64,000 nucleotides of DNA from Undibacterium parvum (GTDB lineage Bacteria > Pseudomonadota > Gammaproteobacteria > Burkholderiales > Burkholderiaceae_D): the NCBI RefSeq assembly GCF_003955735.1, contig NZ_CP034464.1:2418001-2482000 (forward strand), written 5' to 3'. Positions 46,414 through 53,650 of this stretch are shown piece by piece (positions within the stretch are counted from its first letter, which is position 1; every line of letters begins with the position of its first letter). The notes under the pieces are model-generated. The model did no database searches, was not told the DNA's origin, and was given only the letters and a program-made list of their open reading frames with translations. Both the position numbers and the translations under genes were made by a program.

Positions 46414-46775
46414 GTAGGCTGGGCTAGAGTTTTATCAGCCCAGCATTTCAATTCACATTGAGCCGGCAATATGAAAAATTTAAATCGATCTTATTGCGAT
46501 TCCCTAGCAAATAAAAAATCAAAAACGACCCACTGCCAGCGCGCATATTCCATGCGGACTGCAGGCCGGCATGGCTGCAAACCCGCATAGAATATGCGTG
46601 AGCGGGGTGGTGTTATTTAAGAAATTCAAAAACGCCCGTTGACTCGACCGTCAGGCTTATTGCTAAATTGCGTGGCTTAGCTACATCCGTCCCACGCGCC
46701 AAGGCGGTGTGATACGCGAGTAATTGCAGGGCTCTATCGGTGCTATCCATTGCGGGGTCGGTCGTAGGTGAGGCA
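46414..46775. repeat. glmS-tail repeat unit A
   Basis: One of three ~330-360 base direct repeats (others at 50341-50700 and 53323-53650). In order it holds the GGCTGGGCT/AGCCCAGC hairpin (46414-46444), a conserved CATTTCAATTCACATTGAG stretch, a REP-like palindrome with second-type centre (46534-46614), and a copy of the last glmS codons (46640-46730). A and B match each other about 45 bases farther than either matches the resident glmS. The rest of the gap to 47111 shows no recognisable gene. Confidence 0.88.
46640..46730 (-). pseudogene. glmS 3'-end fragment (copy A)
   Basis: Read on the minus strand it codes LQLLAYHTALARGTD, then VAKPRNLAISLTVE: 26 of 29 residues match the GlmS C-terminus. 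About 19 bases differ in 87, nearly all at synonymous positions. The stop codon is changed (TCA instead of TAA). The fragment begins abruptly and cannot be expressed as GlmS. Confidence 0.88.
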
Positions 46776-47111
46776 TGCTTCCACTTCGAATAACGATTTC
46801 AATTTTGGTGCTTGCATCGCAGCAGATCATGTCCGCTCAGGGCAGTTTTCGGATTACATTGGCCGCACCCTGCTGAGCCGCATTGTTCCGTTTTGTTCCA
46901 TATTGAGCGGGTTCGAAGTGATAGGTCGAGTCGTCAGTAATAGCAGCTATTTATGTCTAGCCGATGACGACAGTAGTGAAAAAATTAGATGTGACACTCT
47001 ATATCCTTGCTGCCTAAAAAATCATCAATCGTGTTTCAATACCTGACGAAAAATTTCGTACACAGCACTAGCAAACGACGATTCATCTTCCACTATTTCA
47101 AGGACCTCCCC

Positions 47112-48134
47112 ATGAAATCAGCACTAAGATTGACAGTACTCGCATCTGCATTTTGTATCGCTCTTCCCGCTTTAGCTTTTCAGCAAGAGACCCATCGTCG
47201 CATAGCGATGGATGCCGTCAGCTTCATGAAAAACAACCCTGACAAAACCAACTACACCAAGTTGGCGGCAGGTCTGGCACGCGCCGGTTACACGGTAGAG
47301 CAATTTGCCACCGCCATGGGGCAGGGCGCCTACGATGTCGATGATTTCGCCGACACCTATATCTGCGGCGCCACCACTGGTAATTGCCAGTTGGCACCAG
47401 TCTGGGGCGCAGCGCAAAGCATCGTCAAGTACACGTCATACTGGCATTTTCAAAACCATACCGCAGGACCAGACGTGCATGGCAATCCTTTTGGCGGCTA
47501 CAACTATGCCAAGCTGACCGTGGCCGGCGACATCGATAATCTGGCCGCTGCCTGGTTGGTCGGTGATTACCTGGATGATGGTGCAGGCGGGCTCAAGGGC
47601 TGGTTCGGCGACAGCAGCAAATACAATACCTATGGCATCACCGAGGCGCACTATCGTCACGGCGGCAACTCTAATGTTAATCAATATGCTGATTTTGAAA
47701 AAGCCCCATTTCAGCCTATCGACAATCTGGCGCAGTACTGGTTTCAGCAATTTTTGGCCAAGCCAAGTCTGCAGAGTCTGGGCTTTGTGATGCACTCCAC
47801 CGATTTATTGCAACCGCATCACACCTGGACTACTTCGGCCAAAAACCACTCAGGTTGGGAGCAATGGGTCAACGATTATTACTATAGCCAAAATTTGAAT
47901 GACGCCAGTCTGGTGAACGCCGCGCTGGCAGACTTTAATCCGCTGGCAGCCAATGCTACCGACATCCGTCCCTTGCTGACTGAAGGTGGTACTTACTCGT
48001 ATCGCGTGGGCGGCATAGTCTTGTCGTCGACCGATCAAAACGACAGGGTACGGGTAGGCAAGCAGGTGGTACCGCACGCGATTGCGATGGTCGTGCACGT
48101 TTTGAATCGCGCCGCCGAACGTCTGTCCAACTAA
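47112..48134 (+). CDS. Secreted zinc-dependent phospholipase C/P1 nuclease-like protein
   Basis: 340 residues, signal peptide ending at ALPALA, mature start FQQETHRRIAMDA. Spaced His/Asp motifs fit the helical phospholipase C/S1-P1 nuclease fold: ETHRRIAMD, WHFQNHTAGPDVH, NLAAAWLVGDYLDD, EAHYRHGG and GFVMHSTDLLQPHHTW, the last being the typical C-terminal zinc-ligand helix. The ATG at 47112 follows AAGGA. A parvulin-type foldase and an anchored protein follow immediately, suggesting a secretion unit like lipase with its foldase. Substrate (phospholipid or nucleic acid) is not determined. Confidence 0.65.
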   Translation: MKSALRLTVLASAFCIALPALAFQQETHRRIAMDAVSFMKNNPDKTNYTKLAAGLARAGYTVEQFATAMGQGAYDVDDFADTYICGATTGNCQLAPVWGAAQSIVKYTSYWHFQNHTAGPDVHGNPFGGYNYAKLTVAGDIDNLAAAWLVGDYLDDGAGGLKGWFGDSSKYNTYGITEAHYRHGGNSNVNQYADFEKAPFQPIDNLAQYWFQQFLAKPSLQSLGFVMHSTDLLQPHHTWTTSAKNHSGWEQWVNDYYYSQNLNDASLVNAALADFNPLAANATDIRPLLTEGGTYSYRVGGIVLSSTDQNDRVRVGKQVVPHAIAMVVHVLNRAAERLSN

Positions 48135-48135
48135 G

Positions 48136-49572
48136 ATGAAAAGGATAGGCATGCAGGCCCCGTTATTTCGACATTTGTTTCGGCAATTGTTTCGACAGTT
48201 GTTTCGACATTTTTTTCAACATCACTTGCTACAGTTTTTCCGGCAAGGCTTGTTGTTCTTAATGACGGTGCTTGGCCTGTGCGCCTACCCCTCTTTTTCT
48301 TTGGCGCAAACCGCCACGGCCTTGCATGAACCAAGCCTGGCGGCGCGCGTCAATGGCGTTGCCGTGCATAGGTTTACCCTGGACGTGATGGCTTACATGG
48401 CGCAGTTATCTGATCCAAAAACTTCGCGCGCCGTGGTGCTCGAATCCTTGCTGGCGAATCGCTTGCTGGCGCAGACTGCGCGCCGCGACTTTGCCGAATA
48501 TACGACACCCGCCAGCGCCAATCGGGTCGGCTTTGCCGCCGAAGTGGCACTCGACGATCAGCTTAGCGGTACTTTGCGCACCGTGTACCGCGATACGATT
48601 GAGGCAAGCATCAAAACTCTGGCGGGAGGCAACCTCAATAGCCTGGTGCTAGAGCGCGGAAAACTCGCGACGGATCAACTTGATCTGGTGTTCGGGCCCA
48701 GCGACAAGGTCTTGCTCGACTACCAGTTAACTCCGTCCCAATTGAGCGCTGCCAAACGTCAGATGGTCTTGCGCAGCAGTCTGGCCACAGCTAGCAGTAT
48801 CAGTCTTTACGATATTTTCGTGCGCCAGAATGTACAGGGGCGGGTGGAGTTTTTTAACCGTAACCATGATTACATGCAGCAGCAGGCGATGTTATTGCTA
48901 GGCAATCTGTATCTGCAGCAATGGGCCAATCAGCGCTTTGGTGCCGATGCCGTGGCCGACTTGCGGCTGGCCTTGTCCGAGCAAATCGAAGTACGCGCCC
49001 TGATGAATTTGCACGGCGTAGGCGCCGACATTGATTCCGAAAGCCAGCTCCTCAATCGCTTGGCAGCACAAGTTACAGCGGCCGAAGTGCAAAGCTATTT
49101 TCAGTCGCATAAGGAAGAATTTAAACGCATCGTTTCGGTTAAGGCGCGCCACATCCGTAGCGCCGACGAAGCCAGTGCCAGAAGCGTGATTGATGCTGCC
49201 GCCAAAGGCGCAGACTTTAGCCAACTGGCGCATCAGTATTCTAAGGCCGCCGATGCAGCGCAAGGCGGCGATCTGGGTCTGATTATGCATCGTTCAAAAA
49301 TGAGCTGGCTAGAAGAGCTGGCCTTTATGCAGGACGTGGGTAAGGTCTCGCCACCGTTTCGTGCCGCGGTTGGTCCTAAAGAGCAGGCATACTGGGAAAT
49401 TGTATTGGTTGAACAGCGCAAGGAAGGCTATCAAGACCCCAAATCAGAAACCGTACGCTATCAGGCTGCACGCGCGCTGGCGCAAGAAAAAGCGCTGCGC
49501 CAGATCAGTAACTTGCGCCAGCAATTACTAAAAAATGCGAAGATAGAAATCAACCGCCAGAGCCTGGGATAA
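48136..49572 (+). CDS. Periplasmic PpiC/parvulin-type peptidyl-prolyl isomerase
   Basis: 478 residues. A parvulin domain spans about residues 330-425: VSVKARHIRSADEASA, GADFSQLAHQYSKA, GGDLGLIMHRS and SPPFRAAVG. The N-terminal ~270 residues are helical and SurA/PrsD-like. The N-terminus is odd: a repeated LFRQ/LFRH tract coded by 12-base tandem repeats precedes a hydrophobic segment and an FSLAQ cleavage site, giving an unusually long basic signal. An ATG at 48151 is an alternative start. The gene begins one base after the phospholipase-like stop, so it is probably the dedicated foldase of that protein. Confidence 0.75.
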   Translation: MKRIGMQAPLFRHLFRQLFRQLFRHFFQHHLLQFFRQGLLFLMTVLGLCAYPSFSLAQTATALHEPSLAARVNGVAVHRFTLDVMAYMAQLSDPKTSRAVVLESLLANRLLAQTARRDFAEYTTPASANRVGFAAEVALDDQLSGTLRTVYRDTIEASIKTLAGGNLNSLVLERGKLATDQLDLVFGPSDKVLLDYQLTPSQLSAAKRQMVLRSSLATASSISLYDIFVRQNVQGRVEFFNRNHDYMQQQAMLLLGNLYLQQWANQRFGADAVADLRLALSEQIEVRALMNLHGVGADIDSESQLLNRLAAQVTAAEVQSYFQSHKEEFKRIVSVKARHIRSADEASARSVIDAAAKGADFSQLAHQYSKAADAAQGGDLGLIMHRSKMSWLEELAFMQDVGKVSPPFRAAVGPKEQAYWEIVLVEQRKEGYQDPKSETVRYQAARALAQEKALRQISNLRQQLLKNAKIEINRQSLG

Positions 49573-52877: not shown

Positions 52878-53080
52878 AGCTCTGCTTCTTGCTACTAAAA
52901 GCTAGCTATAAGTAACAAATTGAAACAATTTTACATATTAGCAATTTATTCGATATCTGAATAGAAATATTACTAACAGCACTTGTTTTTAATTAAATAC
53001 CGCAATTCAGGTCGTCTGATTTCTCCTTATTTTGAGACAAGGCAATTTCTTATACTTCTCCCATACAAGGAGAAGTTCAC

Positions 53081-53266
53081 ATGGCAGGAATCACACTCGC
53101 GCAAGCGCAGGCACAGGCACCGCTGGATGCTTATCTGGCGGCAGAAGTTGCCGTACTCGGTAGCCAGTCTTATGAGATTGCCGGTCGCAAACTCACCCGC
53201 GCGCATCTCGATTTCATTCAAGAAGGCATTACGATCTGGAGTAACCGGGTAGGTCGGGAGTTGTAA
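53081..53266 (+). CDS. DUF6148 family phage-type small protein
   Basis: 61 residues, MAGITLAQAQAQAPLDAYL, then SYEIAGRKLTRAHLDFIQEGITIW: the pattern of DUF6148, a small family in phage head-tail modules (gpW-like position). AAGGAG lies eight bases before the ATG. No other phage gene is present, so it is a lone remnant or a domesticated gene directly behind glmS-tail unit C. Confidence 0.72.
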   Translation: MAGITLAQAQAQAPLDAYLAAEVAVLGSQSYEIAGRKLTRAHLDFIQEGITIWSNRVGREL

Positions 53267-53322
53267 GGGTAGGTCTTGCGTTGACGTATTCCGAGTTTTA
53301 ACTCAAAGCGCAAGACGTAGCT

Positions 53323-53650
53323 CGTAGGCTGGGCTAGAGTTTTATCAGCCCAGCATTTCAATTCACATTAAGCCGGCAATATGCGTAATTTAAATCAGGC
53401 TTATTGCGATTCTACTGCAAATATAAAATTCAAAAACGACCCCCTGCCAGCGCGCATATTCCATGCGGGCTGCAGGCCAGCATGGCTGCAAACCCGCATA
53501 GAATATGCGTGAGCGGGGTGGTGCTATTTAAAAAAATCAAAAATTTTCTTAAAACGTCTTACTCGACCGTCACACTTTTTGCCAGGTTGCGTGGCTTATC
53601 CACATCCGTGCCGCGTGCCAGTGCCGTGTGGTAGGCCAGCAATTGCAAAG
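53323..53650. repeat. glmS-tail repeat unit C (at the resident glmS)
   Basis: Hairpin 53323-53353, conserved stretch, REP-like palindrome with second-type centre 53445-53523, and the last ~30 codons of the intact glmS. Matches to units A and B stop near 53650 inside glmS and at the hairpin on the left. A further 8-bp inverted repeat (GTCTTGCG / CGCAAGAC) lies just outside at 53273-53317. Confidence 0.88.

What the first reader, a model, noticed from the sequence alone, without database searches (positions are those of the whole stretch)
46414..53650. Three stacked glmS 3'-end units divide the glmS downstream region into two inserted blocks
Seen: units A, B and C each carry a hairpin, a REP-like palindrome and the last ~30 glmS codons in the same orientation, and they bracket two unrelated gene blocks (46.8-50.3 kb and 50.7-53.3 kb). 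Known: glmS 3' ends are insertion sites for Tn7 and some genomic islands. Inference: a mobile process inserts DNA behind glmS and leaves an incoming glmS tail at each junction, so successive insertions stack. No tnsABCD genes or integrase are visible, and classic Tn7 does not duplicate the glmS coding end, so the mechanism may be a less-known one, for example a recombinase acting in trans, or homologous recombination of circular DNA through the glmS-REP-hairpin unit.
Basis: partly seen in the sequence, partly recalled or inferred. Interest (0 to 1): 0.8.

Follow-up and report, generated by a model that had tools for sequence, protein, structure and literature searches.

The report
Stacked glmS-tail repeats bracketing gene blocks
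Behind an essential gene of a freshwater bacterium, two worn copies of that gene's tail and its repeats mark the borders of two unrelated gene blocks, a trace of DNA being added there piece by piece, most likely by ordinary recombination rather than by a dedicated mobile element.

Summary
Units A, B and C are real direct repeats (A-B 91-92%, A/B-C 84%); C is the true glmS end. A and B are a chimera: hairpin, spacer, REP, last 29 glmS codons, then a dispersed palindromic repeat (R) in place of the rest of glmS. The genus is Undibacterium. Genes behind glmS vary strongly between relatives. None of the block proteins was found there in 19 relative glmS loci; block 2's 314-aa protein occurs in 1 of 43 genus genomes; block 1 is a three-gene set that relatives keep elsewhere.

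The same tail|R joint occurs in G006 (on a contig without glmS); G025 has the unit, with a deletion across the joint, behind glmS. A and B share changes that should kill the tail, so they are copies of one dead unit, not tails displaced afresh at each insertion. No tyrosine recombinase lies within 180 kb and no TniQ is in this genome. I favour recombination-driven stacking: a founder joint by illegitimate recombination, then homologous exchange through the units. A lost site-specific recombinase is the main rival. Known parallels: displaced 3'-end arrays (Vibrio T6SS, Rhs) and Dehalococcoides ssrA islands. Interest is moderate.

The parts
53559..55376 (-). intact glmS (605 aa); its last 29 codons (577-605) are the model for the tails
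   Evidence: full-length, 89-97% aa identical to the 19 relatives' GlmS
53315..53558 (.). unit C noncoding part: hairpin (about 53323-53358), spacer, REP (about 53447-53525), directly behind glmS
   Evidence: most of it also behind glmS of G014
50340..50567 (.). unit B: hairpin, spacer, REP
50567..50656 (-). unit B: glmS tail (codons 577-605) with K600I, D593A, stop lost
50652..50760 (.). unit B: R element (dispersed palindromic repeat) whose outer end is replaced by the glmS tail
46413..46640 (.). unit A: hairpin, spacer, REP
46640..46729 (-). unit A: glmS tail sharing the three changes of B
46726..46775 (.). unit A: first about 50 nt of R, then block 1
50758..53266 (.). block 2: two CFI-box-CTERM proteins (50758-51333 -, 51330-52274 -), DUF6232 protein (52394-52756 -), short head-tail adaptor homologue (53081-53266 +)
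   Evidence: 314-aa protein in 1 of 43 genus genomes
47073..50226 (+). block 1: three genes, a protein without family match (phospholipase-like by eye), a PPIC-type isomerase, a 192-aa protein
   Evidence: same three genes at other loci in 8 of 8 relatives inspected
45838..46275 (-). 145-aa ORF left of unit A, not found at relatives' glmS loci
44955..45533 (-). NnrU: first gene left of the stack that is shared with G014, where its truncated copy abuts the glmS hairpin

Best explanation
This is a stack of acquired gene blocks behind glmS, built by recombination without a dedicated mobile element. Step 1 (inferred): incoming DNA related to the glmS region recombined homologously in or near glmS on one side. 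On its far side an R repeat was joined to the resident glmS at codon 577 through a short GCAAT.GC match, leaving the old tail, REP, spacer and hairpin behind the new block as a chimeric unit. Step 2 (that A and B are copies of one dead unit is shown; the route is inferred): that unit, now a repeat of 300 bp or more lying behind glmS, served as a homology handle. Exchanges between unit copies, by uptake of DNA or of circles from relatives, added or swapped blocks and copied the unit. The glmS tail is a passenger fossil, not a regenerated attachment site. Nothing here shows current activity.
For: The same tail|R joint is read in A, B and G006 C100; G025 has the same unit with a deletion across the joint. 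A and B share K600I, D593A and stop loss, while 18 of 18 working glmS tails printed keep Lys; the G006 and G025 unit tails have ATG (Met) at that codon (my reading). The gene between the R-tail-REP unit and the glmS-type flank differs in each genome: CFI-box genes (G000), UPF0489 (G006), a 319-aa protein (G025). A/B versus C: tails 78% identical but hairpin-spacer-REP 91-92% (Fisher p 0.003 and 0.0016; 0.03 if the REP is left out), whereas the orthologous pair C-G014 shows no such contrast (91% versus 90%, p 1.0). Tail A versus C has 16 nucleotide differences in synonymous codons and 3 in changed codons, so the tail descends from a glmS lineage long separate from this one. In C itself the last 29 codons lean to another clade: 3 of 581 windows are as extreme, with the switch between codons about 574 and 582. 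Two other glmS fragments behind glmS break elsewhere, at codon about 497-503 in G004 and about 564-573 in G179. No recombinase family matched the block proteins; the nearest PF00589 match is about 181 kb from unit A; no TniQ. Block 1 is a discrete gene set that relatives keep elsewhere. [quoted passage not shown]
Against: No genome with a clean empty site or with one block only was found. R is more alike between B and G006 (15/114 differences) than the tails are (25/84), and tails A and G006 differ at about 12 synonymous against 8 changed codons (my count from the rows), which a single dead founder tail does not predict without later exchange. A wider cut of the noncoding part gives 89.5% instead of 91-92% for A-C and B-C, so the contrast with the tail is smaller there. 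The mosaic test across A, B, C gives only p = 0.07. The window test on C's tail rests on 87 nt, G014 shows 5 of 581, and I chose the clades after seeing distances. The G179 break lies within about ten codons of codon 577, so it is weak evidence for scattered breakpoints. Circles, DNA uptake and competence were not tested. The unit in G006 is not beside glmS.
Confidence: 0.46

Rival explanations
1. Stacked site-specific islands: a tyrosine or serine recombinase, now lost or acting in trans, inserts elements at glmS codon 577. R is the element arm, the gene is restored by a tail carried on the element, and the old tail is displaced to the far end, as for Dehalococcoides ssrA islands and cis-mobilizable elements.
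For: The joint is at the same codon in A, B and G006; R is more conserved than tail and REP, which are lineage-specific; C's tail looks foreign from about codon 577 on; G006's unit tail is nearest to glmS of G025 and G006, its own clade; G179's glmS fragment starts within about ten codons of 577. Stacking of gene 3' ends with a recombinase in only some islands is described for ssrA (PMC3146451, passages seen).
Against: A and B share changes that should inactivate the tail, so neither can have been the working glmS end between two insertions. Homology of the units runs about 230 nt beyond the gene. No recombinase family in the block proteins tested and no PF00589 match within about 181 kb of unit A; serine recombinases were not searched. 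R has other copies not joined to glmS.
Confidence: 0.28
2. Rearrangement only: a tandem duplication behind glmS made the first R|tail unit, and later REP- and R-mediated inversions, deletions and translocations of the host's own genes placed blocks 1 and 2 between copies, with no incoming DNA.
For: At least 37 REP copies besides A, B, C in the genome; block 1 is a chromosomal gene set elsewhere in relatives and its isomerase is single-copy here; G006 may have had glmS parted from its flank at a REP (inference); G014 shows local deletions (my reading).
Against: Block 2's 314-aa protein is in no other of 43 genus genomes at E 1e-8; tails A/B are too far from C at synonymous sites for a duplication of this genome's own glmS; blocks 1 and 2 share no direct repeat of 25 nt or more.
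Confidence: 0.18
3. Tn7-like transposition at attTn7 behind glmS, with the machinery since lost.
For: Tn7-type elements use glmS (recalled); in G001 a TniQ gene lies directly behind glmS.
Against: No TniQ in G000; transposition into attTn7 does not copy glmS codons (recalled); Tn7-like ends were not sought.
Confidence: 0.05

Closest known systems
Displaced 3'-end arrays: Vibrio T6SS effector-immunity arrays and orphan Rhs 3' regions (PMC5361080, passages seen)
   Same: New DNA joins at a conserved gene and older 3' parts are pushed downstream, stacking remnants without an integrase; homology-facilitated illegitimate recombination (given there as perhaps) plus homologous recombination is the proposed mechanism
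   Different: Here the gene is the housekeeping gene glmS, the remnant has no evident function, and the repeated handle includes REP, spacer and hairpin
Dehalococcoides ssrA-specific genomic islands (PMC3146451, passages seen)
   Same: Several islands in tandem behind one essential gene, bounded by repeats of the gene's 3' end; not all carry the integration module
   Different: There the repeat is 20 bp and 16 islands have an integration module with a serine recombinase; here the unit is about 330-420 bp, the tail copies are dead and copied from one another, and no recombinase was found
Minimal mobile elements of Neisseria (recalled; only a search listing seen)
   Same: Different gene cassettes between conserved flanks, exchanged by homologous recombination
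   Different: Here the flanks are repeat units that also stack
Tn7 at attTn7 (recalled)
   Same: Same chromosomal address behind glmS
   Different: No TniQ gene in this genome; glmS codons are duplicated

Membership tests
Displaced 3'-end array (recombination-built) | remnants of the gene's 3' end stacked downstream in the same orientation | tested here: met
Displaced 3'-end array (recombination-built) | no recombinase present at the locus | tested here: met
   block proteins; TniQ; PF00589
Displaced 3'-end array (recombination-built) | each remnant is an independently displaced older end | tested here: not met
   A and B share K600I, D593A and stop loss
Site-specific genomic island at a gene 3' end (ssrA-GI / CIME type) | integrase or resolvase gene within the island or a sibling island | tested here: not met
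   no match among the block proteins; nearest PF00589 match about 181 kb from unit A; serine recombinases not searched genome-wide
Site-specific genomic island at a gene 3' end (ssrA-GI / CIME type) | short direct repeat at a fixed crossover position in every insertion | tested here: inconclusive
   same joint in A, B, G006; deleted in G025, explicable by descent; G004 breaks elsewhere, G179 within about ten codons
Site-specific genomic island at a gene 3' end (ssrA-GI / CIME type) | circular excised form | not testable with these tools
   needs reads or PCR
Tn7-like transposon | TnsABC plus TnsD/TniQ | tested here: not met
   0 TniQ matches in G000; TnsA/B/C not searched
Tn7-like transposon | TnsB-binding end repeats | not tested
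   no search made
Minimal mobile element | alternative cassettes between the same flanks in different strains | tested here: inconclusive
   three genomes show different genes between unit and glmS-type flank; species, not strains, compared, and in G006 glmS itself is elsewhere

The most novel reading that the evidence does not exclude
The glmS 3' flank of some Undibacterium works as a recombinase-free cassette array. A chimeric glmS-tail/REP/hairpin unit is a portable homology handle that travels with gene blocks between species and lets new blocks stack behind an essential, conserved gene, a general route for island growth with no mobility genes.
Probability: 0.2. Interest if true: 0.65.

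Novelty: new variant of a known kind. Interest (0 to 1): 0.42.

Why it matters
Many genomic islands have no visible integrase (general knowledge). A locus whose borders carry readable fossils of the joining steps would let one test whether such islands grow by ordinary recombination through repeats. glmS is also the standard Tn7 address, so a second way of filling that site matters for how insertions there are interpreted.

Tried and rejected
Tandem duplication of the whole block: blocks 1 and 2 share no direct repeat of 25 nt or more; in G004 only the glmS part repeats, apart from matches of 12-22 nt. Phage carrying a glmS tail as attachment site: 23 phage records match; the 15 listed look to me like host DNA filed as phage (three rows carry an annotated glmS or its product, the rest are unannotated). 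Plasmids: 323 records match; the 15 listed are annotated glmS genes (9) or unannotated places on records of 2.1-3.5 Mb (6). A structured RNA: none in Rfam for 44500-54000 at E 0.1. Extra tail in G078: an assembly overlap, the two contig ends read the same. Pattern hit in G017: its ordinary glmS at a contig start. The junction pattern also matches ordinary glmS in other genera (58 of 392 genomes had a match; only A, B and G006 C100 are chimeras as far as I could judge from the matched letters). G134: a decayed glmS copy, not a tail. G011, G152 and G086 extra hits are weak (44-46%, frames of 344-358 aa) and look like paralogues; not followed. Extra glmS pieces in 80 named loci: none at E 1e-3, but that search also misses the truncated G025 tail, as does, and several loci are short. 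My G025 row was misaligned (1 column compared) and is not used; one search is. The 9-nt-deletion reading of A/B that I first made was dropped once R was recognised. Papers: answered searches; their listings show no report of stacked glmS tails; they cover only the open-licence library, and only two papers were opened (passages).
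Full report
What is there. The window is part of a one-contig genome of 4.91 Mb. Named relatives with the closest GlmS are Undibacterium; one of them, Undibacterium sp. E19_metabat.bin.90, has a contig of the same length (90,082) as G025 C20. glmS runs leftward (53559-55376, minus). Reading leftward from it: REP, spacer, hairpin (unit C), block 2, unit B, block 1, unit A, a 145-aa ORF, NnrU. Units A and B match over 358 nt at 91%, A/B and C at 84%. Of 40 scored candidates (354 in all) only A, B and C match the whole unit; the hairpin-spacer stretch is whole only in A, B, C (20 of 20 candidates scored); the REP matches 37 further places at 80-93%.

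What the units are. A and B carry the last 29 glmS codons and then run into R, a dispersed palindromic repeat with two other near-full copies in this genome. One of those (L087) shows an outer end of about 20 nt that is missing in A and B; there the glmS tail takes over at a short GCAAT.GC match. The same joint is in G006 contig C100; G025 has the unit with a deletion across the joint, between GCCGT repeats (my reading). In G025 the unit lies about 1.9 kb behind glmS, with a 319-aa gene between; in G006 it flanks a UPF0489 gene on a contig without glmS in the part read, followed by a hairpin-REP that resembles the glmS flank at 75-77%. G006 and G025 share the far flank, a GGDEF gene with no comparable match in the other 41 of 43 genus genomes, at 94% over 196 nt, the REP and its edges at 95% over 121 nt and the tail with 3 differences in 60, against 86% for glmS. 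That segment is probably younger than the split of their glmS genes.

The region is variable. Of 13 window proteins tested against 20 relative loci (19 glmS loci and G006 C100), full glmS and Lrp were found in the 19; NnrU and the FAD gene only in G014; none of the seven block proteins in any (E 1e-4). Two groups of relatives (G018/G026/G034 and G008/G032) share the first listed ORF behind glmS, and a few further genes recur between relatives; otherwise the listed genes differ. Two loci had only about 1.2 kb of downstream sequence. Block 2's 314-aa protein is in 1 of 43 genus genomes, this one. Block 1's isomerase is in 12 of 43, this one included; in 8 of the 11 relatives I fetched the surroundings, and in 8 of 8 the three genes sit together. 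In G001 and G012 they are about 45 and 36 kb from glmS on the same contig; none of the 11 matches lies in the glmS stretches that I fetched.

Ages and origins. Tails A and B differ at 7 of 87 nt and share K600I, D593A and loss of the stop codon; 18 of 18 working glmS tails printed have Lys there. In E. coli GlmS the matching lysine binds the sugar substrate (recalled), so the shared ancestor of A and B was very likely already dead. Tail A differs from C by 16 nt in synonymous codons and 3 in changed ones, a pattern of two working genes diverging. No sampled glmS is clearly the source: nearest 15-16 of 84 differences among 94 tails. The noncoding parts of A/B and C are 91-92% alike although the tails are 78% alike; the orthologous pair C-G014 shows 90% and 91%. 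A wider cut gives 89.5% for the noncoding part, and without the REP the Fisher p is 0.03. The reversal suggests that the noncoding parts were exchanged or homogenised separately from the tails. A formal mosaic test over A, B, C is only suggestive (p 0.07; AB|C sites 10 of 27 up to column 222 and 20 of 27 after it).

glmS itself may be mosaic. In G000 the last 29 codons are nearer to clade G034/G018/G026, the rest to G006/G025/G011; 3 of 581 windows are as extreme, and informative sites switch between codons about 574 and 582. G014 shows 5 of 581 and an earlier switch. I chose the clades after seeing distances, so I treat this as a hint.

Machinery. No recombinase family matched the block proteins; 10 tyrosine-recombinase matches in the genome, the nearest a partial one about 181 kb from unit A; no TniQ here, though 15 of 43 genus genomes have one over the cut-off and in G001 it is directly behind glmS. 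TnsA/B/C and serine recombinases were not searched.

Interpretation. Two linked steps fit best. A founder joint arose when foreign DNA ending in R was fused to the resident glmS at codon 577 by a short match, with the other side crossed over in or near glmS. This is homology-facilitated illegitimate recombination, suggested for Vibrio arrays in which old 3' parts are displaced downstream (PMC5361080, passages). The resulting unit was then copied and reused as a homology handle. Shown: the units, the shared joint, the shared changes of tails A and B, the variable contents, the absence of nearby tyrosine recombinases. Inferred: order of events, uptake, circles. Site-specific stacking as in Dehalococcoides (PMC3146451, passages) remains the main rival because the joint is fixed and tail and REP are lineage-specific while R is more conserved (B-G006: R 15/114, tail 25/84); the shared dead tail of A and B argues against its simplest form.

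Other cases. G004 repeats glmS codons from about 497-503 on, 970 bp behind glmS; G179 repeats codons from about 564-573, 5.65 kb behind it. Extra pieces of this kind are rare: in the family search of 145 genomes (136 with a match, only seven of them from the genus), G000, G134 and G179 had genuine extra glmS pieces, G078 was an assembly overlap, three weak hits look like paralogues, and the truncated G025 tail was missed. Within the genus G004 and G006 add two.

Noticed in passing
window 40001-43573 versus L061 8661-12215: 99.5% identical to G014 although glmS is only 87% identical and the stretch 53538-56929 only 79%; the match stops inside the FAD gene: a recent exchange ending close to the glmS flank.
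   Followed up: no
L064 about 10060-10120 (G025): A piece that reads to me like the 3' part of a tRNA-Phe lies directly behind glmS, so block borders in G025 would be a tRNA end and a glmS tail; ARAGORN finds no whole tRNA.
   Followed up: partly
L061 13134-13307 (G014): About 175 bp with inverted ends inserted between the glmS stop and the REP, MITE-like.
   Followed up: no
L217 2258-3943 (G001): TniQ-domain protein directly behind glmS, a possible Tn7-like element in the genus.
   Followed up: no
L215 (G006 C100 34661-37261): Two TniQ matches on the same contig as the displaced glmS-tail unit, about 34 kb away.
   Followed up: no
window 53081-53266: 61-aa DUF6148 / head-tail adaptor homologue at the edge of block 2, perhaps a phage-derived scrap.
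   Followed up: no
L083 11245-11685 (G134): Decayed remnant of a second glmS (both ends present) on another contig than the intact gene.
   Followed up: no
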